A program made the translations under genes and the position numbers. Shown here piece by piece: positions 2,442 through 64,000 of a stretch of 64,000 bases of DNA (position 1 is its first letter; every line of letters begins with the position of its first letter). Location of the stretch: assembly GCA_030248225.1 (NCBI GenBank), contig JASANE010003362.1, positions 1 through 64,000 on the forward strand, in the 5' to 3' direction. This DNA is from Trileptium ribeirensis. Taxonomy: Eukaryota > Nematoda > Enoplea > Enoplida > Thoracostomopsidae. A model generated the notes under the pieces. It was not told the origin of the DNA. It was given only the letters and a program-made list of their open reading frames with translations, and made no database searches.

Positions 2442-2494
<53 letters not shown>

Positions 2495-28070: not shown

Positions 28071-28620
28071 CAAATTTACAGGGAGTAACCGGAATTCCGT
28101 GTTCCGTGAAAATCGTGTTCCGGTTGCGGTTCCGGCAAAAGGCAACAACCATACCGGACCCGGAATTACGGTTTAAAAGTTTTGTTTAAAATTTTCGTAT
28201 TTTTGCTTCATCTGTGGTCCAAACATATATATAATATATACGCAATGATCAAATTCCACTACAACCAAACAAAAGAAAAGCTAAATTGAGCAAATTGCCG
28301 TGCGAAACGTAAGTAGGACACGTAATTTCGGCACTCCTTGGGTTGGGGGGGAATCTGGGAATCGTCGTACAGCGATGATTTTGGTATCATTCGACTCAGC
28401 TCGACGAGCCGAGTTCAACGGTACCAAATTTGACCATATTCCAACAACTTTGAAATTTTTCAAATTTTGCCCTCAGTACTAAGGGGTACGTTGAAAAATC
28501 GAGAAAAATTTTTTATGAGCAAAATAGACATAAGTAGCAGATATACACGCAGAATGACGAGACAAATTCAAGCGTGCCTTATTTATCATATTTTCACTCT
28601 TTAGCTAGTTATGGCTGAAA

Positions 28621-28776
28621 AAGCCTAAGCCTTAGACTAAGCCTAAGCCTAAGCCTTAGACTAAGCCTAAACCTAAGGCTAAGTCTTAGACTAAGCCTAA
28701 GCCTAAGCCTAAGCCTTAGAATAAGCCTAAGTCTTAGACTAAGCCTGAGCCTTAGACTAAGCCTAAGTCTAAGCCG
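28621..28776. repeat. Degenerate TTAGGC-type (telomere-like) array
   Basis: About 155 bp of GCCTAA hexamers (reverse complement TTAGGC) are broken by variants such as GCCTTAGACTAA and AACCTAAGG. TTAGGC is the canonical telomere repeat of many nematodes. The array is interstitial, lies inside a transposon copy and ends directly at a perfect GC hairpin. Confidence 0.75.
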
Positions 28777-28794
28777 GGGGGCTCCGCCCCCCGG
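28774..28794. repeat. Perfect 9-bp GC hairpin
   Basis: CCGGGGGGC / TCC / GCCCCCCGG forms a perfect 9-bp stem with a 3-nt loop, immediately following the TTAGGC-like array. It may be the end of a mobile unit that carries the array. Confidence 0.85.
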
Positions 28795-30507
28795 ACTCCC
28801 CGTACTAAGCTGTTCTCCCACTAAACCTAATCACGATATGACCAATGCCAAAAATCCATCCATTTAAACGCATAAGAATTTCATTTAAAAATATCAGTTT
28901 TCGCTTGCATTGCCAGTATCGGGCTCCATATGTCGTTACCCTGACTACCTACGGATTTGTACCATACACCGTTCGATAGCGCATGGGATCTTCTATTTCA
29001 TGTCCAAACTTGAGCCAAATCGGTCCATCCAATGAAAAGTTATGATCAAAAATGTAAAAAAAACCAAAATCCACATTTTTAAAAAAATTCCGACCCCTGA
29101 AATTAGGGCCCCTTGCTGAAGCCCCCTTAAGAGTTAGAGCCCTGAAACCTTCTCCATTGGAAAGAGCGGGGAACATTACCCCCCGGGGGGTTAGGGGGGA
29201 AGAATATTAAAGCGAAGCTTTAGGAAAAAATTGCCAGAAAAGCCTCCATATCCCCCAAAAATTTACTGATTCAGATGTCTGCGCGCTATGTTAGAATTAA
29301 GCCGGTGCAATTCGGTAACAGAGTATGAGTTATGTAGAAGTATTTAGCTGTAAGCTTGACTAACATAAATTACGTAAAGCACCAGTCAGTGCGCTTGTAA
29401 ACTTTGTAAATCAATCTACATTGAAGTAAAGTAACGGTGTCTGCAACGCAGCCAGAAACTGCGTTCTTGGCAATGAACTGTATTTATATATTGAAAATGT
29501 GCGAGCAGTATTAGTTTGTCTTATTTTTAGCTTTCTGATTAGAAAGTTATCATCATTATCATCTAACTGACGGGCACTGGTTGTCCAACACCAGCCTAAA
29601 CAGTGTCTTTGACCACTGATCAGAAAATTACGTATAGTATATATATACACCTTCTATCATTTTCTCTTAGAACCATATAAACCAATAATGTCAAGTTTCT
29701 TACAGAATAACGTGTAACAAACGTATATGTAGTAAGGCGACTGAAGACAGAGTCAAAGTGTTTATTCTATGCTCCATGCATTATTCAGTTTCACATTCAG
29801 TTTGACGCAATATACGCGAGGGTGTATAGTGGAAAGAATTTTTTGCTCTGAGGGTCCAAAAACCGACATATTGTTCGATAAAAAACACTATTAATTTCCC
29901 AGTCTCTTTAAATTTCCAGAAAGGCAATAATACCATCGCAATAGATTAAGTTTAATGCAAAAGTTATTTTAAATACATTTTAAATCCGCTGTACCTTAAT
30001 TTCTTCCTTTATATATCTGTTTTACTATGTACAAGTTTCGAAGACCAGGTTCCGGTTCCGGATGCGGTTTAAGTGGACTGTTCCGGTTGCTAGTTCCTGT
30101 TCCTGTAAATTTCGGTTCCGGTTATTCCCTGCTCGGGGTTATCTATCTTTTGGAGATTAACGATTACTTGGCTAACCGACTCTTATTTTTCGAACTTTAT
30201 TTCTACAGCTTATTTGCTTTAAACGGCCGGTTTACCACCCAATGGATTTATGGTTTCTTGATTATATTAAGGATTTCTGATTGTGTCATACCGGATGCGA
30301 ACATTAATTATTCCATGCGTTGTTGAGAATATTTCGAGTCAAAGTTCATTCAGCCCTGTTACAAAGTTAAACATTATTACAACCTAACTTCATAAATAGG
30401 TATATTATCTTGGTAATAATTACGTTATTCTTATTATTTTCCCAAGTGAAACTTGAGTTAGCACGAACGTAACTTTTTTATAATCGTATTGGAAATAACG
30501 CGCCAGC

Positions 30508-48660: not shown

Positions 48661-49015
48661 TGCCGCTTTTCGAACCAGCTCCCAAAGCTGTTATTTCTGT
48701 AACAATATATGATAAATGTCTGACCCCTAAAGGAAACATGGGCCATTTATGAATCCATAGAGCGTTTTGCAAATAGGTATAGTTTTTCACCTAGACTTGA
48801 GTTTATTGACGATGTATACCAAACAGTGTTCTCCGGGTAATATATTACCTAAATATATCCAATTTGTGTCTATAAGATATTATATTTGTTATTATGTGAT
48901 GTTACTTTAATAAAAATATTTCATGGCTGTGCGTACTAAGGAGTGGTGTCTTCTAATGTGTACTAGGACCAGTTCTGGCCCTAAGGGATCCCAGCTGCAC
49001 CACTCTCAGTATTCA
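48661..49015 (+). mobile_element. Candidate LTR with adjoining primer-site-like sequence
   Basis: The segment begins TGCCGC just after a run of nine G (48651-48659, PPT-like) and ends TTCA. It carries AATAAA at 48909-48914. Three bases later comes TGGCGCCCGGACAACCCC (49019-49036), which looks like a tRNA primer binding site. A PPT on one side and a PBS on the other is unusual for a single LTR, so one of them may be chance. No second copy of the LTR was found in the window. Confidence 0.3.
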
Positions 49016-50175
49016 TTGTGGCGCCCGGACAACCCCGGCTTACACGATTCCCCGGTGGACCCTAGTCTGACCGATGGGAACCGCTTAGCTTAGTAGGCCG
49101 CCGGCGGGTTTACCAGGGTGTTCGGCCTGGCCCCTATAATGGCCCACGTGTCTAGTGGCATGCAGGTCCCCCTGAGGGAGGGTCATCCCTTAAGCCTGCT
49201 CACAGGTAATAGGGCGGACCCGTCTTTCCCTCATCTCCGATTATCGAATCTTATGCCCTATGTCGGGCCAGCTTTTCGAACTGTGGAGCCCAATTTTATA
49301 AAGATTTTAGTGAACTTAACGAATATTCCGTAGCCCTTGGGCTCGAGTACGCGGAGTTTGGCCGGGTCCCTTAGCTCAACTTGGAGTCGGACACGCTGAG
49401 CCTGCTCGGGCTATTATGTATAAGACGTTGGCGTTAAAGCTCAGGAACTCGCACCAAGACTTATTGCTAACAACAAGCACATGGGGCGCGGGTGCATGCA
49501 GAGTTGGAGGAGCGCTGAGGGTAGGCGGACCAACATTGAATTTTAGCAAAGCCCGAACAGATGCCTTGGCGGAGAGCGACGACATGGCAACAAGAGAACG
49601 GCAGGACGGGAGCGAGCGTCGTTGGGGTTGCGTATTGGAGGAGAACAGGGATCTCCGTTAACTAACACTGAACGCCTTAGTAGGGTCATGCAATTCTTGC
49701 TGCAGGGGCCTGAATTTAAATCGATCTATTCCGCCTACTAAGTTTCACACGCAAAACCTTTTTATTTCATGGATTTCCCTTTTTTGACAAAGAATTAAAA
49801 CATAGGCACGCATTTACAAAACAAAATTCACCCACTCGGGTGCATAAAAACATTGTATCATTTACATCAAGGGCGAGCCAGAACCCGAGCCCATGTGCGC
49901 GGTCCTGGGCCCAACTGATACTGTAACGATTAGTTCAAATGTGGTAGAAATTTGACACCCCTTTTAAATTTGTCTTCTCTACGCCCCCGTTGGCTGACGA
50001 AATAATGTCCCATGAGCTCCATTTGGGCTCTTTTCGAAACGCGGAGCCCTCGACCCGAAATTTAGTACTAACGTCCTTGCCTACTGTTCACTTCCACGTT
50101 AATTATCCAAGACTCCTAACATCTTCAGTGCCGCCCTAAGCTTGATCTCGCGTTTGCCTTTATTCAATTTTAGAA

Positions 50176-50341
50176 GCGCGGGCACAGCACTTACGGGCGC
50201 GCGAGGCGTCCAACGGACGCCCCAACACCCGTAAGGGCTGTCCCTATTCCTATGCCTAAGCGTGGAAGTTTTAAATCTCTGGGAGGTGCCTCGAGCGGAA
50301 CTCTTCCACGCGTCCGCAATCGAAGAGTCCACCCGAGATAA
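50176..50341. repeat. GC-rich direct repeat, copy 1 of 2
   Basis: This matches 50686-50850 at a 510-bp offset. Shared parts are GCGCGGG.ACAGCACTTACGGG, CGCGAGGC.TCCAACGGAC.CCCC and, after a variable stretch, CTCTTCCAC..G..TGC...CGAAGAGTCCACCCG. Confidence 0.75.
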
Positions 50342-50685
50342 CCAGAGCTCCCCAGACTCAGCTCTCGAATTTTCCTTTTTGGTTAGAAACTTTGACCGGC
50401 GACTTCCTAAGCGCGAAAATTTTAAAACCCTGAACTCCACGATATAATCCTCAAAGCACCTACTCGACATTTTAGCGGCGTGCCATTCAGAAAACACTAC
50501 TAAAATTTTCGACTGCGTAACATGGCAATATGCTGTGAAACACAGAATAGTTCACCCACTGGGCAAAAACTATAAAAACGACCCAGGAGGTGGGGAACCA
50601 GTCGAGTGCGGGAGGACCTTCCCCAATTTTTGCAATTTAGACGCGATCCCGACTACAATTTGTCCAACGCTCAACCCACTTCTCC

Positions 50686-50850
50686 AGCGCGGGTACAGCA
50701 CTTACGGGAGCGCGAGGCATCCAACGGACTCCCCAGCACCGGGAAGGGCTGGCCCTGGTCCTAAGCTCGAGCGAAAATTCAAAAACATCGGAAAACCCCG
50801 GGCGGAGCCTCTTCCACACGGCTGCATGCCGAAGAGTCCACCCGGGCTAA
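50686..50850. repeat. GC-rich direct repeat, copy 2 of 2
   Basis: This is the second copy of 50176-50341. Tandem repeats of this size are common in retroelement U3 regions and leaders, but that role is inferred from context only. Confidence 0.75.
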
Positions 50851-52269
50851 ACGAAAACCAAAAACAACGAAAAACGAAGCAACGGGAAATAAAAGAAAGC
50901 TTGGCGACAACCGCCAACACGACCAAATTTTAAAAAACAAGGCTCGACTGGTCCCGATTTAAAGCGAGTGGTCTCCTTTTATACGACTGTACCCCCCGAG
51001 CCTCTTAACCCCGCCACCGCATACCAACTTCGAAATTTCAAACTTTATGAAATCGTAGGCGAATCACAAATATAAACGTACAGCAACGTAAGCAACCAAA
51101 CTATGTGAAATATATAGACAACAAATAATATGTACAAACAAACAAATAAGCGACAACAAATATAACAATGTCTTGCCCTGCAAAACAATTAGCAATAAAC
51201 ACCAAAGAAACGACGCCGACAACATACAACAGAATGACAGTGGCATACGTGGCCAAGCTCGGCCCGTAAACAACAAAACCGCCCCCTGGTCGGTGCGGCA
51301 AAACTTTTAGGAGCAAGATATAACGGCGCTCAGGGCGCCGTTTGCTCATTGGTATATCGCCACATTTTTGCCGATATCTCGGGATCAAAAAAACAGTAGG
51401 CTGCCGGGGGCAGGACCAGAATCATGCCCTGGCAGGCCGGCTACTGATGAGAAATTGATATTTAAGGTATCTCCCACGAGAGGCCCGCTAGAGGCCAGTT
51501 TGCACGCCCAAAATGGAAAATTTTGGGGTCCCAATTAAGTTTGGAGGATCCTGAGCAGACCCGCGGGGGTGGGCGGCCCCGGTTTTCAGGTAAACGGTTA
51601 GGGTGAGACCCGATAAGTGTCCCGGGCTCCAAAAATCTGGGAGTTTGGATTATTTTAGGTACCCTTTTGGGTTTAGAAAATGGGAGGCTTAAGCGCCTGT
51701 TCGGGGGTCCCTAAGTATTTAGGGGATCCAAATTTTTAGACCCGCCGGGACGATTTGACACCCCAGCAGAGTCCTTAAGAGGGCTCAGTCACCCCCATTC
51801 CCATAAAATTTGTGGGTAGCCCAAAAATTAAATTTTCGCGTCGCACCCTAAAATGGCGCCTTAGAAATTCTGTATCCTAAAATAGTCTGTTTTGATTTTC
51901 TCCGACCAAGGATTTTGATCACTTAAAACCCTGCTTGGGGCTCATCCGGATATTCCTCGACCTATTAAAATATATAACGAGCACCAATACACAGCAGCTA
52001 TCGCGAGATACTGATTATTCGGCGTGTGCGCTGGGATCGGCCAAGGGCGACCAGTTTTTGTATAATACCAAAAATCTCTGAAACGTCCGTTGGTCCCCGG
52101 CCTCGCCGAACGCACACCCGCTCTACGCTCTAAATACAATAAAATATATATCCGATAATGCACAAACGTCTTAGATACACCGTGCAACATCAATTTATTT
52201 CCCGAGGATCGACCGGACACCCCTACTAATGATCCTGTTTCTGTATTCGGTGCCAAAATCACCCCGGGC

Positions 52270-52395
52270 ACCGTCGGGTGGTGGAGTGTGACCGTACCAG
52301 TACAATACAAAGTACATACAATTGTTTATTTCATAACAATAGCAACGATATCAATAGCATGATTTTATACAGGGGTCACACTCCGCCGGTATCCG
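52270..52395 (-). repeat. Short inverted-repeat module with TATA box and poly(A) signal
   Basis: On the minus strand a 94-bp core (52380 to 52287) runs from TGTGACC to GGTCACA. Imperfect extensions bring the arms to about 14 bp or more (GG.GGAGTGTGACC). Inside are TATAAAA near its start and AATAAA about 30 bp further on. A purine-rich stretch (GGAAATGGAGGGAATGGA) lies just upstream, about 52385-52402. It could be a promoter/terminator unit of a compact LTR or a small MITE. Confidence 0.45.
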
Positions 52396-52599
52396 GTCGT
52401 CCATTCCCTCCATTTCCTATGAATTTTATGTGGTTTTTTGCAATCTCAGTTCCCTGAAATTCGGGCTGTTACATCTCTTAAAATTTTTTGGATTTATTAG
52501 ACTCCTTACTTAGGGTAAGAGTGTAAATCAGATGGAAAATGAGTTTGTGTGAAATTTCACCGTTAAATCCGTAGATGTACAGCCCGTCATTTGATTTAG

Positions 52600-52835
52600 T
52601 CGGAAAAATTTTGAGATTGTTATGAAATTTAACGTAGAATTTAAGAAAAAATTTCCAAAGGTTTTAAGGTCATGCGTGAAAATTTAAGAAAATTTACGGA
52701 GAATTTGGAGAAAATTTGCTAGATTTCCAGAATTTCCGTAATATTTAGTACATTTTGGGTAAATATTCGATGAATTTTAGTAAAATTTGATAAGTTTCCG
52801 TGAATTTGTATGAAAGGTTGTAAATTTCAGGGCAG
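52600..52835. repeat. AAATTT-rich low-complexity tract
   Basis: Diverged short repeats of GAAAATTT/GAATTT type (for example GAAAATTTAAGAAAATTTAC) fill this stretch. No coding content. Confidence 0.6.
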
Positions 52836-53473
52836 AAGGGTGACCTGATGTCTCTTTACGCCAAGAAAACGTGAAAAACGTCGCTCCTTCTCCCTTATTT
52901 TCCGGAAATTTTCGAAGTTTTCCCTTATGGGCTAAACTGTTAAAATTAGGTTTAAATTCATGTAGAATCTTTTATTATGCTATCTCACGTTGTTTCTTCT
53001 ATACAGCTTGTCCATTATACAAATTACACATTTTATGTGATTATCAAATATATGTACATACTTTTTAGGTGGCACGTACCTCCAAGGGTTTCGTGTGAGT
53101 TGGTCACTCCCAGGAAAGGGTCCGGACTGCCAGGGTGCCTGACCCGGGAGCTCCCAGTAAAATCGCAAATGTTTTCAAAGTTTCCTTGGATCTGTAGCTT
53201 TGATAGAAAGAGAAAATTGATTTCATTTATCCTGCGTTTCGGTACTAGATTAGTTTGGTTTGGGTTGTTTCCTACTAGCAGTGCTTCCGATTCAGCCAGC
53301 TCCAAATAATATTCCCTACGAAATTCTGCATCGCTGTGTTCTGCGTACTCTCGCTACCGCTCGCTGCCACTAGACCTAGTTGGGCTCCTTCGTAATTTCC
53401 GGTTTGCCTACGCAATAACCTATCATCTTACAGTGCCGTCCCCGCTCTATTTTCGCGCGTTTTGGTGTAGCCC
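52836..53473 (-). other. 3' region after the last accessory ORF of the retroelement
   Basis: This lies directly downstream of the 53474 stop on the element's strand. A charged open stretch ends at 53033 (ATG-started part 53033-53305; open further up to a TAG near 53360). It contains EYAEHSDAEFRREYYLELAESEALL and has no recognised domain. The 3' LTR should lie here or further down, but I could not fix its ends. Confidence 0.3.
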
Positions 53474-54733
53474 TCAGTGTGTTAAGCGCCTTAGCTCGGC
53501 GTCCCTAACTAAACGGCTCACCCACTCATGCAAGTTACGCCGACAATACTGCGACACCATCGGCTCGTCAAACTGAGGCCTTTCTTGCCATTCCATGTGT
53601 GGTTCGTCCCGTTCCCACGCGTCTGCACTGTGGAACGCGACCGGCCAGGAAGGCATATACACGTTATGGAAGGTGTCGTGCTGCCGTCGGTGGTTGGCCA
53701 TCAGTTGCTTGAGCTCGGCCGTCCAGGACAAAGCGTCCTGATTGGTGGCAGCCCATCGGGGTGCCGGTGGCGCTATAACGATGGCGGTGTTGGCTGCAAC
53801 TCGGCGAGAGAGTACGCCCAGGTGCCGCTTAAATTTGCGAAAGGCGGCGTTCGGCAAGGCGGCGTGGAGCTGCTCCATTGGTGCCTTGCGATAGACGTAT
53901 TGGAACCCGCCGAGTATGATGATGCAGTTGGTCTGCGGGGTTAGAATCGCGTTGGCCAACTGCAATAGGCGCACCATGGTTGATCCAGGCCACCCATTGA
54001 CGATCCACTTGTTCTCGGTGGCCATTTCTAGTATTGGCAACGCCAGGGCGTCACCTATTATGACTGTCTTGGGCCAGCGAACGTGACCGGTAGCACGGTA
54101 ATCCCGTACTTCCTCGAGTAGTCGGCCCATGACGTTGTGGCAGCGCGTTGGGGCTTCCTGCTGCTGCAGCTGTTGGTTTGTACGCCCAACGCCCCAGAAA
54201 CTGTCCGTTGTGGCTTCCAACAGTTGTTGGTCGTCTGTAAGTCGCAGAATTCGCGCATATTCCGGTATGGCGAACTTGCTAAGCAGGATCGGCCGCATTA
54301 TGTGCTCGAGGAGCGGCTTGAGACGGGCTTGGGTGACACCGTCAATGAGCTCGTTCTTGAGTTCCCGAGCTCGCGTTTTAAGTTGCAGCGGGGTGCCGGT
54401 CATGAGTAGCAGTTCTCGGACGGCATCGGTCAGTTCCAGCAGCGAGAGCACCTGTACCTGGTAGTGTTTCTCGACGGTCGACAAGGTGTTGCCGTCGTGT
54501 GCGAATGGGGTTGGTGCCTCGTGCATGTTTGACAATTCCGGCCATTCGGTACCGTGGGATAGGAATGTCACGTATGGCTTAGTTAGGTCCACACGGTAGG
54601 TCGGAATCGCTGGGAGCTGGAACCACGTCGATTCTGGAGGGGCCAATGGCCCACTCAACGATACGCGTCCGCTGGATCGCCTCCGAGTCTGCTCGGCTTC
54701 GTCGCTGCATTGCGGTTGCGTGGTGTCGGCCAT
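53474..54733 (-). CDS. NADAR-SGNH fusion protein, accessory ORF 2
   Basis: The likely start is the ATG at 54731-54733, because a strong 3' splice site (TTTCTTCTTGCAG) ends exactly before it; another in-frame ATG lies 18 bp upstream. The protein is then 419 aa. Numbering from the upstream ATG, residues about 60-218 form a NADAR (DUF1768/YbiA-like) domain. Its marks are LSN followed by PF.HDG (73-87), TVEKHYQ (92-98), MRPILLSKF (152-160), LLEATTDSFWGVG (177-189) and HNVMGRLLEEVR (205-216). Known NADAR proteins cleave N-glycosidic bonds in riboflavin intermediates or remove ADP-ribose from guanine. Residues 226-420 look like an SGNH hydrolase fold (VIIGDA at 230-235, IIILGGFQ at 277-284). Block I reads GDA instead of GDS, so the nucleophile is absent. 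It is a paralogue of the frame at 54938-56185. Confidence 0.85.
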   Translation of the reverse strand: MADTTQPQCSDEAEQTRRRSSGRVSLSGPLAPPESTWFQLPAIPTYRVDLTKPYVTFLSHGTEWPELSNMHEAPTPFAHDGNTLSTVEKHYQVQVLSLLELTDAVRELLLMTGTPLQLKTRARELKNELIDGVTQARLKPLLEHIMRPILLSKFAIPEYARILRLTDDQQLLEATTDSFWGVGRTNQQLQQQEAPTRCHNVMGRLLEEVRDYRATGHVRWPKTVIIGDALALPILEMATENKWIVNGWPGSTMVRLLQLANAILTPQTNCIIILGGFQYVYRKAPMEQLHAALPNAAFRKFKRHLGVLSRRVAANTAIVIAPPAPRWAATNQDALSWTAELKQLMANHRRQHDTFHNVYMPSWPVAFHSADAWERDEPHMEWQERPQFDEPMVSQYCRRNLHEWVSRLVRDAELRRLTH

Positions 54734-54746
54734 CTGCAAGAAGAAA
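54734..54746 (-). promoter_or_regulatory. 3' splice site abutting the accessory ORF 2 start
   Basis: The minus strand reads TTTCTTCTTGCAG directly before ATG, a textbook pyrimidine tract plus CAG acceptor. It implies that this ORF is made from a spliced subgenomic mRNA. Confidence 0.75.
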
Positions 54747-54895
54747 CGCACATAAATATTCGGGTTGTCGTTGCGTTGGGTCGCTCTATTTCGCTAATCG
54801 CTCGCTGGTTATTTCTTTCTTGTCCTGCTTTACCTATGCGTTTCCTTATAGCGCTACTACCCTAAGCGTTTCCTTTATTTCTCCAAATAGGCTAT

Positions 54896-54908
54896 TTCTT
54901 CCCCCCCC
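54896..54908 (-). other. Purine run between the two accessory ORFs
   Basis: The minus strand carries GGGGGGGGAAGAA in the 204-bp gap between the accessory ORFs. It resembles a polypurine tract, such as the internal tracts some retroviruses use for plus-strand priming. A position between coding frames rather than next to an LTR makes this only a possibility. Confidence 0.3.
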
Positions 54909-54937
54909 TATTTGTTTGGGTTGGTACGGCCTCATTC

Positions 54938-56185
54938 TTACCAGGGTTCAGCCTTCTTATATAAATGGGCTTCGCCCATGCGCCAAAATATGTCCGTACG
55001 GCGAATCAGTTCTTCCGTCCAATCGCATAGTTCTGGCCAAAACGACGGCGAAACTACTGGCTCGAGCCATCGTTGGCGTTCTTCGCCTCGATTAAACGGA
55101 CCAATCGCGTCCCAGGCTTCAACCCCTTTTAGCGCCGCGGGCCATTTCGGCATGATGACGCTCGTGAGCGCCTGGTGCCCGTCCACCATCCTGGTCCTTC
55201 GCTCGGTCAGTTCATCGAACCACGCCGTGCTGTCGTACCGGAAATCATCCCAGTGTGGCGCTGGCCCGGTGATGACGATGGCCGAGTCTGCCCGGAGCCG
55301 TCGCTCGAGCACCATGAGGTGGCGTTTGATCCGCTTGAGGTAGGCGCCTGGCGAGAGTGCCTTGTTTGGCAAGTTCCAAACATCCCGGTAGCCGCCGATG
55401 ATGACGACGCAGTCTGTTTGCGGCGTTAGGAACGCGAGCGCCCAGTGGATCAACGAGATCATGCCGAGTCCGGGCCGTACGAACGTGATGCGATTGTAGT
55501 CGTCGGCCACGTCCAACAGCGGCAAGGCACGCTCGTCGCCGACGATGATAGTCCGCGGCCACCGCACAAAACGGTCGCGGTGGAACGACCGGATGTCGCA
55601 TAGTAGATGTCCCAGCGCGTTGTGGTATGCCGGTTGGTCGGCCCCGCACTCGCTCCGGTGGACACCCGTACCCCAAAAGTTGTCAAAGGTGTCGTTGAGG
55701 AGCGGCTTATGGCCCGAATCATATAGGTCGTCCCAATAATCGAGGTCCTGGAACTTAGCCAGGAGAATTGGGCGCATGACGTGGACCTGGTATGATCGGA
55801 GCCATCGTCGAGTGTTGGCCGGCAGCGAGCGGAGGAGGGCTACGCTGCGTAGTTTAACCTCCGTCGGTGACATCCGTTGATCCAAAATAGGGGCGATCGC
55901 CGAGACGAACCCCAATAGATCCAATATGGTGATGTAGAAATGCTCGGTGACGCTGCCGAGCTGGCGACCGTTGTGATTAAAGCCACCACCGTGGAGATAG
56001 TGTTCGTTGGCCAGCGTGTATTGATTGGATCGCTTGACCTCGACCGCCTCCCAGAAGCGTGAGCTGCTCATGTGGCTTCGGGGAACGGCCGGGTAACGGT
56101 GCCCATCGCACACTGCAGGCTCATGGAGCACTCCTTGTGGCAGGCGGGGCGCATGGAGATCGTTCTGGCTGTAGCTGCGACGCAT
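54938..56185 (-). CDS. NADAR-SGNH fusion protein, accessory ORF 1
   Basis: This protein is 415 aa, from the ATG at 56183-56185, which lies directly after a TTTTAG acceptor. The NADAR domain (about 55-200) keeps LANEHYLHGGGFNHNG (58-73), VTEHFY (79-84), HVMRPILLAKF (135-145), LLNDTFDNFWGTG (162-174) and YHNALGHLLCDIR (187-199). The conserved Glu of EHFY and the D..FWG residues are therefore present. The second half (about 210-400) is SGNH-like: TIIVGDER (212-219) and CVVIIGGYRDVW (259-270). The block I serine is replaced by Glu, and the block III Asn by Arg. The stop is 204 bp before the ORF 2 ATG. The two frames share domain order and motifs such as MRPILL.KF, RWP.T.I.GD..ALP and LTPQT.C, so one arose by duplication. 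Function is inferred only. Confidence 0.85.
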   Translation of the reverse strand: MRRSYSQNDLHAPRLPQGVLHEPAVCDGHRYPAVPRSHMSSSRFWEAVEVKRSNQYTLANEHYLHGGGFNHNGRQLGSVTEHFYITILDLLGFVSAIAPILDQRMSPTEVKLRSVALLRSLPANTRRWLRSYQVHVMRPILLAKFQDLDYWDDLYDSGHKPLLNDTFDNFWGTGVHRSECGADQPAYHNALGHLLCDIRSFHRDRFVRWPRTIIVGDERALPLLDVADDYNRITFVRPGLGMISLIHWALAFLTPQTDCVVIIGGYRDVWNLPNKALSPGAYLKRIKRHLMVLERRLRADSAIVITGPAPHWDDFRYDSTAWFDELTERRTRMVDGHQALTSVIMPKWPAALKGVEAWDAIGPFNRGEERQRWLEPVVSPSFWPELCDWTEELIRRTDIFWRMGEAHLYKKAEPW

Positions 56186-56195
56186 CTAAAATGGA
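56186..56195 (-). promoter_or_regulatory. 3' splice site abutting the accessory ORF 1 start
   Basis: The minus strand reads CTTCCTCCATTTTAG directly before the ATG; the last ten bases fall in this interval. Together with the matching site before ORF 2, it points to splice-dependent expression of both accessory proteins. Confidence 0.65.
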
Positions 56196-56320
56196 GGAAG
56201 CACAGGTAAATTTACATGATATGGATGAAAATTAGGTCTGCCTTAATTTTCACCCTTGTTCTGGGTTTTGTGGGATTTTTTGGGTTCTACCTCGGGGTAC
56301 GTGCCGTTATGTCGGGTAGT

Positions 56321-59300
56321 TTAGTCCACTTGCGGGTCCGACTCATCGGACTCAGATTCCTCATGGGGTGGTGGTCGAGGTATGCGCTGTCGCCAAGCGG
56401 CAGGGTGCAGTTCTTGACTGGAGGGGTAGCGGGGGAACGTGGTTGGTGGCAAGGTTCCGCCGGGAGAGCGTTCTCCTGTTAAAAGTGGTCTTGGGGTCAG
56501 TATTGGCGCGCTGGTCATTGAAGTGGTGACACTTGTGGATTGTGCGCGTGTGGCGGAGGCTAGTCTAGTTGAGGTTCCCGCAGTATCGGCAGCGGTTGTC
56601 TCTGGTTCCTGAAAAGTCACGCGTCTAGGCCTACGTAAGGCGTCCTCTACTTCCTCGTCCGATGCTGCGCCATACGGCCTAAAGACCCGGTCTCTAGCTT
56701 GTCGATGTAAAAGGTGCCTAGTTGGGGCTGTTGCCTGCGTGGTACTGAGTCGCATTATTCCTGAGGAGGTGGTAGTGGCTGTGGTACGTACCAACTCGGT
56801 GATAGTTACTGTGGACGGTCCCGGTTGTTCAGTGCTTGTAAACTGGATAGTTGAACTGCCTCGAGCCGACACTATCTGTTTTCGTTGGGTGGCCCGTCCG
56901 ACAAGGCCCTTTCCTCGCTCTTCTGACGGTGTTCGTGTGCTCCTTTGCTGGCTCGGCGGTGCTCGGGCGCGAGGAGGGGTACTTAGTGTTACTGCGCGCC
57001 CAGTTCCTCTCCGAGGTGCCGGTGCTTCGCTACTTGAACTTGCAAGTGTGAATTCACTAAATGAGTCAGAGGCACCCGGTTGCGTGGTAGGAGTCCTAGA
57101 GCTGGTGCTGGACGTTTCCTGTCCTGCCTGAGCGCGTCGTTCGGCAGAGGACGGTTCCTGCGAAGTTTGGCTAGTTAACTCGTCGTCTGCCTCAGCTGCT
57201 CTTATGTCTACTGTCGTGCCCTCTCCGGAGGTTTCCGACAGGTAACTGGACATTGGTGACCCTAGTGGTGGCTGAGTCATGGGTGCCTCGCGGAAGACCC
57301 ATTGATGCGGAGACGTAGGCCAATTAGCGGCTACTGGTGGAGCACTATAAGGGCGCATTGTGGTATAGTCTCCTATGGTTTGGGTTGACATTTCCATTGG
57401 CACTCGCAATCGCGATGCCATAATGTGTTCGGCTGGTCGTGATTGAAATAGCGGGTGGTCCTGCGCGGCGAGCATGATTGCGTAGCGTAGATCCCCTGAG
57501 GTGTATGGTCCTGGTACGACGATTCCTCCCGAAGCTCCGCGTGGCGTGGTGGATAGCGTGATGTCTGCTGGGTAGAAATGTTGTCCCTCGAGTATTCCAA
57601 CACCTACTGTTGGTACACCAAATGGGACTTCCTCGCTGGTAGCCACTATTCTTTCCATCGTGGTCACGGGCACTGTATGTTGACCGTACTCTACCTGCGT
57701 ATCTCGGCTACCAGGTTCTGGTATGTATGAGAAGGCTTCCTGACTAGTAACCTGCTCCTGTGATATTGGTGGCCATGATGGTTCTATTTCCCTATCCGGA
57801 TCAGTTAGTGGGATCCGATTTCTGACCGTCCTTGGATTTTGAGGCTCGTAGTCGTCTGTCCGGTACTCAATATGTTCCATCGCTGCTTGCTCGGCTTCGA
57901 TCTCAGCGTAGGTCCGACGGTATAAATTAGGGTCATTAGGGTCACCCATTTCTATGCTTTCCGTATCGGAACTGTCACTGACTGCTGTTCTTACGGTGCG
58001 CACTGCTACTTCGTCTACCGGCTCTATCTCGGTGACGAAATCCCTATCAGCGATAATACGTTGGGTCGCCTCAGTCAAACCTCGCTCTAGTACGGAAGCG
58101 TGTACTTGGCCTAACCAATCGCCTACGTTAGGTACTGGGTCTAATGCCCTAAAGCATGGTTTAGTTCTATTAATATGTACGACATGGGCTATACCTTCTG
58201 GGTTAGAGTGCATTCGTACGCGCATACACGGCGGGGTGATCCCTAATATCTCGTATGGGCCACACCATCGAGGCGTGAGTTTCCTGGATGTTCCTGGTGT
58301 GGTGTCATGTCTATAAACCCAAACTAATTCCCCGGTGTGATAGCGTGGTTCGCGAGTTCGTCTATCGTATCTTAGGCGATTTAATTCTTGTGCGGCTTTC
58401 ATTGATTGGTATGCACGCTCCCTAATAGAAGCCATCCAGCGCTGCGCGTTGGCCCTATAGGAATGTGCTCCTGTGTATCCAGTGGCAGCACTTTGCGTGT
58501 CGTATTCTCCGGGCAATCTAGGGTAAAATCCATGCATTAGCAAAAAGGGTGGGTATTTCGTTGCTGTGTGTACCGAAGAATTGTAGGCCATGATGCAGAA
58601 TGGTAGGGATACATCCCATGAGTGGTGATCATTTTGTGGTACACTCACTCGTAGCAAGTAGAGTAGTGTCCTATTGAATCTTTCAATTTCCCCATTTGCT
58701 TGAGGGTGGTAGGCTAAACTCATGTGTCGAAAGATTTGCATTTCCTGGCATAGTTCTTCGAACATGTGCGCTGTGAAGGCACCTCCTCGGTCAGAATAGA
58801 GCTCCCTGGGAGCTCCGTACCTATTAACTACCTCATATAGGAATATGTGGGCAGCTGTATGAGCATCCTGGTGCCGCATTGGCACTGCTATTGCAAACTT
58901 TGTGAACTGATCTATGAATGCAATAACATAACGATTGCCTGCCTGTGACCTAACTTGAATATCCAGTATGTCCACAAATACACGGTACATTGGTTGATTT
59001 GCCAACGGAACCCTACCCAATCCTGTGGTTATCCGAGAAATTGGGTCCTTCGCGGACTGGCATAGAGTGCACCGCCTGATCCATTGCTGTACGTGTTCGG
59101 ACATACCTTTCCAGTAATAAAACTGTTTTAATTTTGCTATAAGCCGGTCACGGCCAGGGTGTCCTCCATATAAAGTATTGTGTTCATGTTTAAGTATTTG
59201 TTGTACAAGCGTGATAGGGACGCATAATTTGTAATTTATATCTCCGGGTTGTAACGGATGCATGTATAATATTTTGGTATCCGCTGCCAATTCAAAATAA

Positions 59301-62300
59301 TGTGCGCGCATTTCTATTCTGAGCGCCCCCAATTCGGCTTTAGGCCGAGTTTTGTTGTAAAGATACCACCAAATTGGACCCAGTTCTGGGTCATTTCGTT
59401 GAATATATGGTAAGAGGCGTACTAAATTAAAATCTGGGAGATCTGAAAAGAATGGTAAATATATATTCTCATGTGTGTCCTGAGCGTCCTCAATTCGGAC
59501 GGTTGGTAATATCTCGGTTTCATAATGCATCATTAACTTCATGAGCCTATCAAATTCTTGTTCTGTGGGTAGCGTGGTTGCTCTTAAGCCCATGGTCTCT
59601 GATTCGGTGCGGAACGGTCTTTTAGGTCCCCGAGCCTGAGGTCTGCCGTCAGGACCCGAGATAGTGGTAGTACGGACCGACATCACTGGGGTTTCTCCTG
59701 GATCCATCCTAATTGGGATGGCACTTAACGTTGCTGCCTGCTGGGTCAGCGTAGCCGGGGGTACTGTAGTTATTTGCGTGTCAGGGACTAGCTGTGATGG
59801 GATTGCTTCGGGATTGGGTTGACCTGGAGGAGCCATCGGGCTCCCTGTTATAGGTGTCGGTGCACCGGTCGCAAGCGGTGTAACAGTGCGTACGGGGTAC
59901 GGCAGGTGCGATTGATCCCATGCTGCGCAGGTTGTTGGCGGGCGTGGTCCGGTGGGTCGTCCCCGACCCATCATAAGGACTTCGTACGTATCACCTATTT
60001 CCTCGATTACAGACGGGTCGTATCTAGGGTCGCGTGACAGAGCATCTGCATTGCCATTTTCCTTACCTGGTCTATATGATATTTCGAATCCCCCAAATTC
60101 AAGTAATAGCTCGCTCCGCCATTGGGACAAGCGTGAGTTTCTGGGTGGTTTGTCAAACAGGGTTTTAAGTGGTTTGTGGTCGGTTTCAACATGGAATTTG
60201 TGCCCTACTAAGTAATGCTTGAAATGTAATGCGGCCCATCTAATAGCGAGAGCTTCAGTTTCTATTGCGGGATACCTGCGTTGATAATCAAGGAGGGCCT
60301 TACTAGCGTATGCAATGGGTTTGATTCCTTGCTTAGTCTTCTGGGATAATACTGCACCCATTGCATATCCGGAAGCGTCCGTTTGCAGGATAAACGGTTG
60401 CGTGAAATCAGGGTGAACTAGGACCGGTTCATCTAGTAGTGCTTGTTTCAATTTCTTAAAGGCTTCCTCGCACCTAGGGGTCCATTTGAATTCCATGTCT
60501 TTGCGTTTTAGCTCATTTAACGGCTCACAGATGTCCGAGTAATTTTGGATGAATTTATGGTAGTATCCTACAAGCCCTAAGAAACTTTGGAGTTGTTTCA
60601 ACGTTTCCGGACGTTTGAATTCTTCGATGGCTATCGCCTTTTCTGGGTCTGGTTTGACACCTTCGGTACTAATTATATGTCCTAAATATTTGAGGCTGCC
60701 TCGTCCGAAGTGACATTTTGAGGGTTTGAGTTTTAAGTTTGCCTTACGGAAACGATCGAAAACCCGAATCAGGTCTGCCAGATGGGCCTCGAATGATGGT
60801 GAGAAAACTAGGATGTCATCGATGTATATTAGGCATTTTTCCCACTCAAGCCCTTTCAAAATCATTGACATGCAGCGTTGAAAGGCTCCGGGGGATGAAT
60901 TTAACCCGAACGGTAGGACATTATACTCATACTGTCCGTGTACCGTCACAAAAGATGTCTTATCTTTGGTTTCGGGATCTAGTTCTAACTGCCAAAACCC
61001 CTTATTTAGGTCCAAACTGGACATTAATTTCGTATTCCTGAGACATCCTAGTATATCATCTATGCGTGGCAGTGGATATGCATCTTGCTCTGCTACGGTG
61101 TTGACCTTCCGAAAGTCGACACAGAGTCGGAGAGAGCCGTCGCTCTTAGTTACATAGACTATTGGTGATCCCCAAGGTGAGCTCGATGGGGCTATGAGGC
61201 CTGCGTCTAACATGCTATTTAGTTCTTCCCTGAGTGGTTCGCGTAAGGAATGCGCTAGCCTATAAGGTGCTTGTTTGATTGGCTTTGCGTCCCCGGTTTC
61301 TATGCGATGTCGATGTTCCGTGTATCGTCCAAGGTCAAAGTCATGTGTGCTGAATACGTCCGCATTTTCAGCAATTGCAGTTTTCAGCTGTTTTAGTTCG
61401 AAAGGCGATAACAGTGTCTTATCAAAATCTATTTTACTCAATACTGTTTGAGCGCGTTCGTGATCAATGGAGCGTTTGCCGGCCTCGATGTGCTCGATAA
61501 TCCTCTCAGGGTGGGTAGTAATATGGTTAAGCTGTTTAGCTTCCTTATGTTCTTCGTACCGTATCAAATTCTGATTGGTATCCTTAAGGAATTGTATTGT
61601 GGGATTGCTCATAACCTCTATGTGCCCGATAGTTTGGCCTGAGTATATGGTGACCGGGGTATTACCAAAATTGATCACTGCGATTGGTATAGTTCGCTGA
61701 CTCCTGAGCACTAATGCGTGTGCCATTGCAATGTCCGTCATTTCGGGAGCGGGGACAAATAGAGCGGGTCCTACGCCTGTGTCAGCAATTTCGGGGATGG
61801 CGTTGATAAACGTTTCTGTATTTGGTTCGATAGTGGTGAGTTTTCTGCACATCACCGCTATTAAGGGTGGGTCATAGCGCTCTAAACCGGCGAAGGGTAT
61901 TTTGGCTTCTTCCTCATCTATGCCAATTTCTAGACAGCGCTCGCGAAAATTTATAATGCACTTAGGCAATTGCGACAAGAAATTTGTTCCTAAGATGCAA
62001 TGATACGGAGCGGTTTGGGTAACGAAGAATTCTGTTTGCACCTTAATAGGTCCAATTGATAAGGGTACACTTATGCTACCGTCCAGTGCTAATTCCTGTT
62101 TGGTGGCCGATACTATCCGCGTCGAGTCGTCTGGGCGGGGCTGAAGGCCTAGCTTATTTACCAAATGCTGTGATACGATAGAGACGTCCGCGCCTGTATC
62201 GATCAACGTGAGTACCGGTGTCCGGTAAATGAAAGCATTGATTAGCAACGGGGCGTCTACGTGCTGCATGGCATTGACCTGCCGGTGGTAAGATACTGTG

Positions 62301-64000
62301 CGATGTCCCCTACGTTGAGCACGCTCGGATACTGCAAATAGTTCCGTAGGTTCCACCAAGACAACGTCCTCGTCCTCACTAGGGTTATTTAGTCGAGCCG
62401 ATCGACGAGGGCTCAATGTCCGCAATTCCAGGTGTTCCGTGGACGCGGCTGGGGCTGAAACTGTCGGTCGGACTGCGTCTGGAGTACCATACTCGTTCCC
62501 GGTTTTGATGTTCAACTCAAGTCTCTTCAGGTTAGTTTGGCTACATGGTCGTTGCTGCCACCAGCGTTGTAAGCGTCCCCGTATGCATTTCGGGCAGAAA
62601 CCTGTTTTCTTCTTAAAGTAAATTATCGCCCCTATACCTACAATTACTAGCACAACGAGCATCCACAGGTAAGGAGCTACGCCCGTTGTCGTAATGTATG
62701 GGAAGTCGATCACCTTCTTCAACTGCTCGTCGGCTATCCGTTGGACCTGTAAGTTGGTAGCCTTGGCGTGTTCCAATGAGCTCCAAGTGATGGGTTGAAG
62801 AGGAATATCTGGGAAGTCATGTATGGTGATGTTAGGTCCGATGTTAACGGTGACCTCCTGAGCATCTAATGTACTGGCGAGCATTAGTGGTCCGACCACT
62901 AGTTGGGTATAGTCGCTATGTGCCAGCCACAACACCCCATTTTCCGGTATCTGGATGGTTTCTCCGCGCGTAACGTGACTGAGGTGCTTTTGCTTGGAGA
63001 CCACTGCTTTGGGCTCAGCGGTTCGAATTAGTACCCCTTGCGCGGTGGTGTACACGTCAGTATGGTTGACCATTGGTCCAACCAATGCGCTGTTCCTGCA
63101 AATGCGGCGCGTGTCATCTGGAGCATCTTCGCCCATGATGATCCAATCCAAACAGCGTGAAGAATGGTCAGTGGCTAAAGCGTGAACCTCGCAAAAAGCA
63201 ATGCCAGGTCGCGTGTTGCATGCGTGCAGGTTCAACACCTCATATCGGGCCTGTTCCACTCGCGTGGCATATTCTGGCAGAGGTAGTCTCATGTGTGCGC
63301 TGCGCTCTGGTACGTTCCAACCGACGTTGTATATCCGAAAATAAGGCCGGACGTCGTCCGACGTAACTAGCGGTACCCTTAGGATGAATGCAAACTTGAA
63401 CGTGCCCAGGTCAATATGCACTGGGTAAATTTGTCCAAATTGGTAGGCTAGCGCTGGTTCGCGTGTTAGTATAGTTTGTTCTATCCTTGGATCCTTTTCG
63501 AATAGACGCTTTAGTGTCGCGGCATCCACTACCTTGGGTGATAGCTGTCCGCTCATCATGGCTTCCATGACAGCGTCAACTGACGAGCGCAGGCTAGTGC
63601 GGAACATGTGGTTTACCAATTCGCGATGTACCTCTGTCACGTAGCGTTGTTCCTGGCATCTAACCTGTTCTATCATGCCAACCACTTCCTGCATTTCGTG
63701 GTGCAAGAAGGAGTAAAGTTCCTCATTGGCGCGTGTTAATTTCAAAATTGCTCGCGCGTTGCCCTGGGCCACACTGTAAGTGTTTCGCATTTCCTTGGAT
63801 AATGCTATCACCTGTTTATTCAGGTCCTTTAGGTGCACTGCATTTGTAAAAGCTACCCCTACTCCTAAAAATCCTGTAACTACGCCTGCAGCTCCAGCTA
63901 GGGCAGCGAGAAATCTTTTCTTACGAGCCCTTGGCTCTTCACAAAAATGAACGTTCGCTTCGCAATATTCACGCATTAGGGCCATGTAATAGCTTGTATC
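56321..64000 (-). CDS. Polyprotein: fusion-glycoprotein-like segment, protease, RT, RNase H, integrase, long tail
   Basis: The frame is open to the window edge; numbering here starts at the first visible Met (63985), giving 2,554 aa. Residues 19-24 RARKKR form a furin-type site, followed by a Gly/Ala-rich hydrophobic stretch (25-50), a heptad region (51-108) and a membrane helix (437-457). After it come the CPKC pair (464-467) and an aspartic protease (LIDTGAD, 594-600; ILGTNFL, 664-670). RT spans about 900-1075 (LPFGLNSSPGAFQ, YIDD at 1054-1057). RNase H has D1203, E1244, D1269 and D1314. Integrase has H1602, H1609, C1639, C1642 and a DX35E triad (D1672, D1732, E1768). All catalytic residues are intact. 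A Pro/Thr-rich linker (about 1338-1470) separates RNase H from integrase. The tail (about 1960-2554) is rich in Ser, Thr and Pro and lacks cysteine. Envelope upstream of pol in one frame is not the normal order. Confidence 0.93.
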   Translation of the reverse strand, partial: DTSYYMALMREYCEANVHFCEEPRARKKRFLAALAGAAGVVTGFLGVGVAFTNAVHLKDLNKQVIALSKEMRNTYSVAQGNARAILKLTRANEELYSFLHHEMQEVVGMIEQVRCQEQRYVTEVHRELVNHMFRTSLRSSVDAVMEAMMSGQLSPKVVDAATLKRLFEKDPRIEQTILTREPALAYQFGQIYPVHIDLGTFKFAFILRVPLVTSDDVRPYFRIYNVGWNVPERSAHMRLPLPEYATRVEQARYEVLNLHACNTRPGIAFCEVHALATDHSSRCLDWIIMGEDAPDDTRRICRNSALVGPMVNHTDVYTTAQGVLIRTAEPKAVVSKQKHLSHVTRGETIQIPENGVLWLAHSDYTQLVVGPLMLASTLDAQEVTVNIGPNITIHDFPDIPLQPITWSSLEHAKATNLQVQRIADEQLKKVIDFPYITTTGVAPYLWMLVVLVIVGIGAIIYFKKKTGFCPKCIRGRLQRWWQQRPCSQTNLKRLELNIKTGNEYGTPDAVRPTVSAPAASTEHLELRTLSPRRSARLNNPSEDEDVVLVEPTELFAVSERAQRRGHRTVSYHRQVNAMQHVDAPLLINAFIYRTPVLTLIDTGADVSIVSQHLVNKLGLQPRPDDSTRIVSATKQELALDGSISVPLSIGPIKVQTEFFVTQTAPYHCILGTNFLSQLPKCIINFRERCLEIGIDEEEAKIPFAGLERYDPPLIAVMCRKLTTIEPNTETFINAIPEIADTGVGPALFVPAPEMTDIAMAHALVLRSQRTIPIAVINFGNTPVTIYSGQTIGHIEVMSNPTIQFLKDTNQNLIRYEEHKEAKQLNHITTHPERIIEHIEAGKRSIDHERAQTVLSKIDFDKTLLSPFELKQLKTAIAENADVFSTHDFDLGRYTEHRHRIETGDAKPIKQAPYRLAHSLREPLREELNSMLDAGLIAPSSSPWGSPIVYVTKSDGSLRLCVDFRKVNTVAEQDAYPLPRIDDILGCLRNTKLMSSLDLNKGFWQLELDPETKDKTSFVTVHGQYEYNVLPFGLNSSPGAFQRCMSMILKGLEWEKCLIYIDDILVFSPSFEAHLADLIRVFDRFRKANLKLKPSKCHFGRGSLKYLGHIISTEGVKPDPEKAIAIEEFKRPETLKQLQSFLGLVGYYHKFIQNYSDICEPLNELKRKDMEFKWTPRCEEAFKKLKQALLDEPVLVHPDFTQPFILQTDASGYAMGAVLSQKTKQGIKPIAYASKALLDYQRRYPAIETEALAIRWAALHFKHYLVGHKFHVETDHKPLKTLFDKPPRNSRLSQWRSELLLEFGGFEISYRPGKENGNADALSRDPRYDPSVIEEIGDTYEVLMMGRGRPTGPRPPTTCAAWDQSHLPYPVRTVTPLATGAPTPITGSPMAPPGQPNPEAIPSQLVPDTQITTVPPATLTQQAATLSAIPIRMDPGETPVMSVRTTTISGPDGRPQARGPKRPFRTESETMGLRATTLPTEQEFDRLMKLMMHYETEILPTVRIEDAQDTHENIYLPFFSDLPDFNLVRLLPYIQRNDPELGPIWWYLYNKTRPKAELGALRIEMRAHYFELAADTKILYMHPLQPGDINYKLCVPITLVQQILKHEHNTLYGGHPGRDRLIAKLKQFYYWKGMSEHVQQWIRRCTLCQSAKDPISRITTGLGRVPLANQPMYRVFVDILDIQVRSQAGNRYVIAFIDQFTKFAIAVPMRHQDAHTAAHIFLYEVVNRYGAPRELYSDRGGAFTAHMFEELCQEMQIFRHMSLAYHPQANGEIERFNRTLLYLLRVSVPQNDHHSWDVSLPFCIMAYNSSVHTATKYPPFLLMHGFYPRLPGEYDTQSAATGYTGAHSYRANAQRWMASIRERAYQSMKAAQELNRLRYDRRTREPRYHTGELVWVYRHDTTPGTSRKLTPRWCGPYEILGITPPCMRVRMHSNPEGIAHVVHINRTKPCFRALDPVPNVGDWLGQVHASVLERGLTEATQRIIADRDFVTEIEPVDEVAVRTVRTAVSDSSDTESIEMGDPNDPNLYRRTYAEIEAEQAAMEHIEYRTDDYEPQNPRTVRNRIPLTDPDREIEPSWPPISQEQVTSQEAFSYIPEPGSRDTQVEYGQHTVPVTTMERIVATSEEVPFGVPTVGVGILEGQHFYPADITLSTTPRGASGGIVVPGPYTSGDLRYAIMLAAQDHPLFQSRPAEHIMASRLRVPMEMSTQTIGDYTTMRPYSAPPVAANWPTSPHQWVFREAPMTQPPLGSPMSSYLSETSGEGTTVDIRAAEADDELTSQTSQEPSSAERRAQAGQETSSTSSRTPTTQPGASDSFSEFTLASSSSEAPAPRRGTGRAVTLSTPPRARAPPSQQRSTRTPSEERGKGLVGRATQRKQIVSARGSSTIQFTSTEQPGPSTVTITELVRTTATTTSSGIMRLSTTQATAPTRHLLHRQARDRVFRPYGAASDEEVEDALRRPRRVTFQEPETTAADTAGTSTRLASATRAQSTSVTTSMTSAPILTPRPLLTGERSPGGTLPPTTFPRYPSSQELHPAAWRQRIPRPPPHEESESDESDPQVD
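56324..58108 (-). other. Ser/Thr/Pro-rich C-terminal extension of the polyprotein
   Basis: About 595 residues follow the integrase C-terminal domain. They lack cysteine, have no chromodomain and no zinc knuckle, and become increasingly Ser/Thr-rich before ending in an acidic patch (EESESDESDPQ). It may be disordered or heavily phosphorylated. Whether it is a displaced structural (gag-like) protein cannot be judged from composition. Confidence 0.6.
62615..64000 (-). other. Class I fusion-glycoprotein-like segment of the polyprotein (N-terminus off-window)
   Basis: This part has the layout of a class I viral fusion subunit: basic cleavage site, hydrophobic N-terminal peptide, long helical heptad stretch, Cys-containing ectodomain with NHT and NIT glycosylation sequons (307 and 385), then a single membrane anchor followed by KKK. 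The upstream surface subunit and signal peptide would lie beyond 64000. Errantiviruses and baculovirus F proteins have similar architecture, but I assign no family because only organisation, not alignment, supports it. Confidence 0.7.

What the first reader, a model, noticed from the sequence alone, without database searches (positions are those of the whole stretch)
53474..56185. Two tandem NADAR-SGNH fusion genes carried by a retroelement
Sequence: two intact paralogous frames, each with NADAR landmarks (HYQ/HFY after a conserved Glu, MRPILL.KF, D..FWG.G, HN..G.LL..(V/I)R) followed by an SGNH-like half, sit downstream of an integrase on the same strand. Known: NADAR proteins act on N-glycosidic bonds, including reversal of guanine ADP-ribosylation in DarT-type systems. 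Inference: the element carries accessory enzymes that may remove ADP-ribose marks or process NAD-derived molecules used in host defence. I know of no described animal LTR element with such a pair.
Basis: partly seen in the sequence, partly recalled or inferred. Interest (0 to 1): 0.95.

Follow-up and report, generated by a model that had tools for sequence, protein, structure and literature searches.

The report
Retroelement family with paired NADAR genes
A large retrovirus-like genome element, present in about a hundred or more copies in one eukaryotic genome, carries two related accessory genes built on a NADAR (ADP-ribose-handling) domain that evolution has kept although a key catalytic residue is missing, which suggests a non-standard job for this domain in a mobile element.

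Summary
The two frames are real and intact, and their N-terminal halves are NADAR domains. They are not host genes: they lie inside a 24.7-kb LTR element (contig 48,959-73,665) with gag zinc knuckle, protease, RT, RNase H and integrase. It is multi-copy: the 100 scored matches to P1, the window's included, are 85-100% identical. P2 sits beside P1 in 47 of 49 copies, integrase upstream in 9 of 9 stretches. Purifying selection is strong (dN/dS by counts 0.095 and 0.134). Both start codons abut a 3' splice site, a feature of only 6 of 2172 ATGs in the window, these two included, so each is probably made from a spliced RNA. The lysine that NADAR hydrolases need is absent in all 49 P1 and 32 P2 copies counted. 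The SGNH-like half is weakly supported and lacks Ser, Asn and His. Active ADP-ribose-removing enzymes are therefore not supported as written; a binding or RNA-handling role is likelier. NADAR in Gypsy/LINE elements and GDSL ORF3s in LTR elements are published; this tandem pair is a new variant.

The parts
53474..54733 (-). P1 (downstream copy): NADAR + SGNH-like protein, 419 aa from the ATG at 54733 (the GTG-started frame reaches 54751)
54101..54547 (-). NADAR domain of P1 (Pfam match)
   Evidence: hhalign
53477..54109 (-). C-terminal SGNH-like half of P1
   Evidence: PF13472 E=0.056 only; low-confidence alternating helix/strand order
54938..56185 (-). P2 (upstream copy): NADAR + SGNH-like protein, 415 aa
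55586..55918 (-). NADAR domain of P2 (Pfam match, below curated cut-off)
54941..55591 (-). C-terminal half of P2, homologous to that of P1 (37% identity)
54734..54753 (-). 3' splice-site-like sequence ending in CAG directly before the ATG of P1
   Evidence: in copies
56186..56205 (-). 3' splice-site-like sequence ending in TAG directly before the ATG of P2
   Evidence: in copies
56321..64000 (-). Polyprotein frame, open to the window edge (a frame in the same phase runs on in L128 to about contig 69,328)
61970..62224 (-). Retropepsin-like protease
60671..61150 (-). Reverse transcriptase (two Pfam pieces)
60107..60484 (-). RNase H
58703..59221 (-). Integrase zinc-binding and core domains
62603..63985 (-). 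Fusion-protein-like segment before the protease: RKKR site, hydrophobic stretch, predicted membrane helix; no family match
52409..53473 (-). 3' untranslated stretch between P1 and the 3' LTR
48959..52408 (-). 3' LTR (partner at contig 70,229-73,665, outside the window)

Best explanation
Shown: P2 and P1 are accessory genes of a multi-copy Gypsy-type LTR element of about 24.7 kb, placed between integrase and the 3' LTR, diverged from one another by an old duplication, and conserved as proteins between copies. Inferred: each is translated from its own spliced RNA, because a 3' splice site ends exactly at each start codon. Inferred: they do not work as ordinary guanine-ADP-ribose hydrolases or esterases, since residues essential in known enzymes are missing across the copies counted. 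Most likely they are binding or adaptor proteins that use the retained part of the NADAR pocket (both Glu, Asp and Trp in P1) to bind an ADP-ribose/NAD-type or RNA ligand and serve the element's own RNA (export, protection or packaging) or blunt a host ADP-ribose signal, with P1 and P2 specialised apart.
For: Both genes lie between LTRs. The 100 scored matches of P1, the window's own included, are 85-100% identical. P2 adjacent in 47 of 49, integrase in 9 of 9 stretches. dN/dS by counts: P1 0.095, its NADAR domain 0.051, its C-half 0.102 (49 copies); P2 0.134 (34 copies). Splice sites: 3 of 1012 minus-strand and 3 of 1160 plus-strand ATGs have one, two of the former being these starts; AG|ATG kept in 45 of the 48 P1 starts listed and 27 of the 27 P2 starts listed. 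Catalytic positions. Analogues from papers: Cer1 CERV, a spliced product needed for genomic RNA export; SNA-3, a NADAR protein in RNA metabolism.
Against: No RNA data, so splicing is only predicted. P1 keeps both glutamates, Asp and Trp, and its NADAR half is its most conserved part, so an enzyme with altered phosphate binding is not excluded. Structure predictions were too poor to use (mean pLDDT 34.1 and 38.1). The SGNH identity of the C-half is unproven. 5 of 49 P1 and 6 of 34 P2 copies have a stop in the aligned part. The adaptor role rests on analogy.
Confidence: 0.6

Rival explanations
1. Active enzymes: P1 (and perhaps P2) still cleave an N-glycosidic bond, of ADP-ribose on nucleic acid or of a soluble NAD derivative, and so counter host defence.
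For: The NADAR domain of P1 is its most conserved part (dN/dS by counts 0.051) and keeps E88, E173, D177 in 49 of 49 and W180 in 47 of 49; the papers describe guanine-ADP-ribose hydrolysis as a shared activity of the NADARs they tested (PMC11543638, PMC11125620).
Against: The lysine essential in E. coli C7 NADAR is non-basic in all 49 P1 and 32 P2 copies counted; the yardstick's Trp89 is Leu in both window proteins, although P2 has a Trp one residue earlier; P2 has Asn or Cys at the second Glu, and Asn at that position cost the E. coli enzyme its efficient activity.
Confidence: 0.22
2. Non-catalytic sponge: both proteins only bind ADP-ribose-type signals or modified nucleic acid and hide them from host immunity.
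For: Partly kept pocket with loss of the catalytic lysine, fixed across copies; many viruses carry NADAR and are argued to counter NAD-derived signals (PMC9503650, passages).
Against: The lost lysine also contacts the ligand's adenine and pyrophosphate, so affinity may be lost too; no host ADP-ribose defence was looked for here.
Confidence: 0.25
3. Ordinary host genes next to a retroelement.
For: GC3 of P1 and P2 (0.676, 0.709) differs from pol (0.445).
Against: They lie between the LTRs, 135 and 204 nt from the neighbouring frames, and are repeated with the element across the genome.
Confidence: 0.02

Closest known systems
Ectocarpus Gypsy lineage with YbiA-family NADAR (PMC12477816, passages)
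   Same: Gypsy LTR element carrying a NADAR domain
   Different: [quoted passage not shown] here it is in two separate downstream genes with a second domain
Oyster Tx1 LINE ORF1 NADAR (same paper)
   Same: NADAR in a retroelement
   Different: Non-LTR element, ORF1 position
Rotifer LTR-element ORF3 GDSL esterases (PMC5408684, passages)
   Same: Extra enzyme-like ORF after pol in LTR elements, SGNH-type
   Different: There the invariant residues are reported intact; no NADAR is mentioned (0 occurrences)
Cer1 and its CERV protein (PMC10309623, passages)
   Same: No stop between gag and pol, splice acceptor before the initiator ATG, TGGGGGCC next to the 5' LTR (here 9 nt past it)
   Different: CERV shares part of the gag frame and NADAR is not mentioned; sequence homology was not tested
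SNA-3 of nematodes (PMC9303266, passages)
   Same: Multi-NADAR protein, one domain without the catalytic residues, tied to RNA processing
   Different: Essential host gene for trans-splicing; no SGNH part described in the passages read

Membership tests
NADAR superfamily | Profile match to PF08719 | tested here: met
   P1 over the cut-off, P2 28.8 bits against 35.1; hhalign 98.2%
NADAR superfamily | Catalytic/phosphate lysine (K95 of E. coli C7, K50 of P. nicotianae) | tested here: not met
   V47 A1 L1 of 49 in P1; L31 M1 of 32 in P2
YbiA subfamily | Second glutamate (E125) | tested here: inconclusive
   Glu in 49 of 49 P1 (met); Asn in 33 of 33 P2 and Cys in 12 of 12 subfamily P2 (not met)
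DarT-linked NADAR antitoxin | Aspartate at that position and a partner ADP-ribosyltransferase | tested here: not met
   residues as above; no ADP-ribosyltransferase among the Pfam hits of the frames tested
SGNH/GDSL hydrolase | Fold/profile | tested here: inconclusive
   PF13472 E 0.056-0.18 in 5 of 6 P1 C-halves, 0 of 6 P2 C-halves; TesA-type profile 0.2-0.6%, reached by 27 and 195 of 1000 shuffles
SGNH/GDSL hydrolase | Catalytic Ser, Asn, His | tested here: not met
   positions placed by eye and by a 30-column hhalign stretch, so conditional on that placement: Ala/Glu, Phe/Tyr, Met or Thr/Val, largely kept across copies
LTR retroelement (Gypsy type) | Direct LTRs flanking gag and PR-RT-RH-IN | tested here: met
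LTR retroelement (Gypsy type) | Target-site duplication | tested here: inconclusive
   none obvious at the flanks printed; exact LTR ends uncertain
[quoted passage not shown]
   no NADAR among the Pfam hits of the polyprotein pieces
Cer1 family | Shared ancestry of pol | not tested
   no Cer1 sequence was fetched

The most novel reading that the evidence does not exclude
A retroelement has turned a duplicated NADAR-SGNH-like fusion into a pair of non-enzymatic, spliced regulatory proteins that act like Rev or CERV on the element's own unspliced RNA, or hide it from ADP-ribose- or NAD-cap-based host sensing: a new class of retroelement accessory protein.
Probability: 0.2. Interest if true: 0.88.

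Novelty: new variant of a known kind. Interest (0 to 1): 0.74.

Why it matters
NADAR domains recur in phages, RNA viruses, giant viruses and retroelements, but outside DarT operons their role is open (PMC11125620, passages). A multi-copy family with two NADAR proteins kept by selection without the catalytic lysine suggests a function other than textbook hydrolysis and gives many natural variants to test it. It also links accessory-gene capture in LTR elements to splice-controlled expression.

Tried and rejected
Relatives outside this genome: none found among the 7998 candidates scored for P1 or for the P1/P2 profile out of 5.8 billion proteins, in viral contigs by peptide patterns, or with the RT piece in viral and genome contigs. 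A DNA pattern for MRPILL..KF gave 10 viral and 90 prokaryote stretches; these 100 and the eight NADAR loci L120-L127 gave no tblastn match to P1, P2 or the polyprotein pieces at 1e-3. Phage records gave only weak NADAR matches to P1 (best E 1e-3). PADLOC: no hit. PHROGs: an unnamed family, phrog_1017. AlphaFold on two-row alignments was too poor, so no fold search was made. The host-gene reading was dropped. An inverted repeat near 52,290-52,380, first read by eye as a tiny LTR, was dropped once the long direct repeat was found.

Full report
Observation. The two frames are intact, on the minus strand, 35% identical. Both N-terminal halves are NADAR: Pfam 5.1e-13 and 1.7e-6, the second below the curated cut-off; NCBIfam riboflavin N-glycosidase model 7.6e-15 and 6.9e-5, both under its cut-off; hhalign 98.2% with a reversed control of 0.2%; and 0 of 1000 shuffles of each reaching the real score. 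The C-terminal halves are homologous to each other (37%). Their SGNH identity is weak. PF13472 is the only Pfam hit for P1's C-half (0.056); it recurs in 4 of 5 further P1 C-halves but in 0 of 6 P2 C-halves, two of which gave DUF4070 at similar E-values instead. Hits of like E-value to unrelated families appear in other pieces of the element. A 9-sequence TesA-type profile gave no support: 0.2-0.6% probability, with 27 and 195 of 1000 shuffles reaching the real score. The predicted secondary structure alternates as in SGNH proteins, but the models have mean pLDDT 34.1 and 38.1. I call this half SGNH-like, unproven.

Element. Upstream lie protease, RT, RNase H and integrase in one frame, open to the window edge. 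The contig continues: positions 64,001-74,000 (L128) hold a 1776-codon stop-free frame in the same phase by coordinates, with a gag-type zinc knuckle (PF00098, 8e-5). A direct repeat of about 3.4 kb at window 48,959-52,408 and contig 70,229-73,665 (86.05% over 3520 columns; 338 mismatches, 153 gaps) brackets everything, so the element spans about 24.7 kb. Nine nt past the 5' LTR is TGGGGGCC; the Cer1 family is reported to have TGGGGGCCG adjacent to its 5' LTR (PMC10309623, passages). No tRNA match was tested. Between gag and protease is a segment with an RKKR site, a hydrophobic stretch and a membrane helix, which looks like a fusion protein to me but matched no relevant family or solved structure.

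Copies. In the window's own genome (687 Mb, 20,229 contigs) P1 had 2644 first-look candidates; the best 100 were scored, the window's own included, and all are 85-100% identical. About 69 of the 100 show no internal stop by my count of the listing. I examined 49 copies besides the window's: the next 29 of the list and 20 that I chose from its lower part. P2 lies beside P1 in 47 of 49; the other two have 115 and 161 bases of upstream DNA held. Integrase (98.5-100% identical) lies at the expected distance in 9 of 9 stretches obtained, of 10 asked; one lay past a contig end.

Selection. Against the window copy, counts over 49 copies give dN/dS of 0.095 for P1 (first 60 residues 0.197, NADAR 0.051, C-half 0.102). 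For P2, 34 of 49 copies passed the filter (E up to 1e-40, identity at least 70%) and give 0.134 (first 60 residues 0.229, NADAR 0.139, C-half 0.111). 5 of 49 P1 and 6 of 34 P2 copies have a stop in the aligned part. In the 29 closest P1 copies alone there are 1854 synonymous and 280 non-synonymous differences on 300 and 957 sites. Copies share history and multiple hits are uncorrected, so the values are rough, but they lie far below 1. Between P1 and P2 too, third codon positions differ most and second least in both halves.

Active site. In the YbiA/phage yardstick (8 sequences) E48, K55, R79, W89, E125, D130 and W133 are among the invariant columns. Per PMC11543638 (one section read) K95 of E. 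coli C7 NADAR is essential for efficient hydrolysis (Arg is tolerated in vitro), and Ala or Asn at the position equivalent to E125 costs efficient activity. P1 keeps both Glu and Asp in 49 of 49 and Trp in 47 of 49, but has V47, A1, L1 at the lysine. P2 has L31, M1 there and Asn at the second Glu in 33 of 33; a P2 subfamily about 69% identical has Cys in 12 of 12. W89 is Leu in both window proteins, with a Trp one residue earlier in P2, and P2's first Glu is offset by one residue. In the C-half the GD[S] serine position is Ala in 47 and Thr in 2 of 49 P1, and Glu in 34 of 34 P2; the asparagine position is Phe (48 of 49) or Tyr (33 of 33); the histidine position is Met in 36 and Thr in 11 of 49 P1, Val in 28 of 28 P2. 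These SGNH positions are assigned by eye plus a 30-column hhalign stretch. Fixed absence across copies argues for a changed function rather than decay.

Expression. Each start ATG (54733, 56185) directly follows a pyrimidine-rich YAG. By the same crude rule only 3 of 1012 minus-strand and 3 of 1160 plus-strand ATGs in the window do, these two included. AG|ATG is kept in 45 of the 48 P1 starts listed and in the 27 P2 starts listed. GC3 of P1 and P2 (0.676, 0.709) is well above pol (0.445), hinting at a separate origin or different codon pressure.

What is known. [quoted passage not shown] GDSL and DEDDy ORF3s and a paramyxovirus-type env in rotifer LTR elements (PMC5408684, passages); an active SGNH ORF1p esterase in ZfL2-1 (PMC3905857, abstract); spliced CERV in Cer1 (PMC10309623, passages); SNA-3 (PMC9303266, passages). 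Searches for NADAR with retrotransposon, NADAR domain, DUF1768, YbiA with transpos-, NADAR with Gypsy, and NADAR with SGNH/GDSL listed no report of such a pair. Searches listed only 20 of 104 and 40 of 218 papers, listings alone were seen for most, and most subscription papers are not held.

Verdict. A real, conserved accessory module of an LTR element family; new variant of a known kind; enzymatic counter-defence not supported as stated; adaptor or binding role most likely but untested.

Noticed in passing
L120, L123 (same genome): Canonical strong NADAR genes beside a Pox_A32-type packaging ATPase and, in L123, a TATA-binding protein: polinton-like DNA elements (my reading) carrying NADAR and TBP. 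The genome gave 2317 NADAR candidates; 150 were scored and the rows listed are over the cut-off.
   Followed up: partly
window 48959-52408 and contig 70229-73665: The two LTRs are only 86% alike (about 80-100% by 250-column block) although the inner frames are intact; recombination between copies is a possible cause. No target-site duplication was obvious.
   Followed up: partly
window 62603-63985: Fusion-glycoprotein-like segment (RKKR, hydrophobic stretch, membrane helix) lying between gag and protease inside the polyprotein frame instead of after pol.
   Followed up: partly
window 2305-2460: Eukaryotic LSU rRNA fragment on the minus strand, Rfam 99 bits.
   Followed up: no
window 15597-16753 and 28079-30106: Two stretches about 82% alike, a dispersed repeat; an RT-like frame at 26593-27354 by eye only.
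   Followed up: no
window 50175-50341 and 50686-50850: Inside the 3' LTR a unit of about 165 bp occurs twice at 76%; the 5' LTR has a like pair.
   Followed up: no
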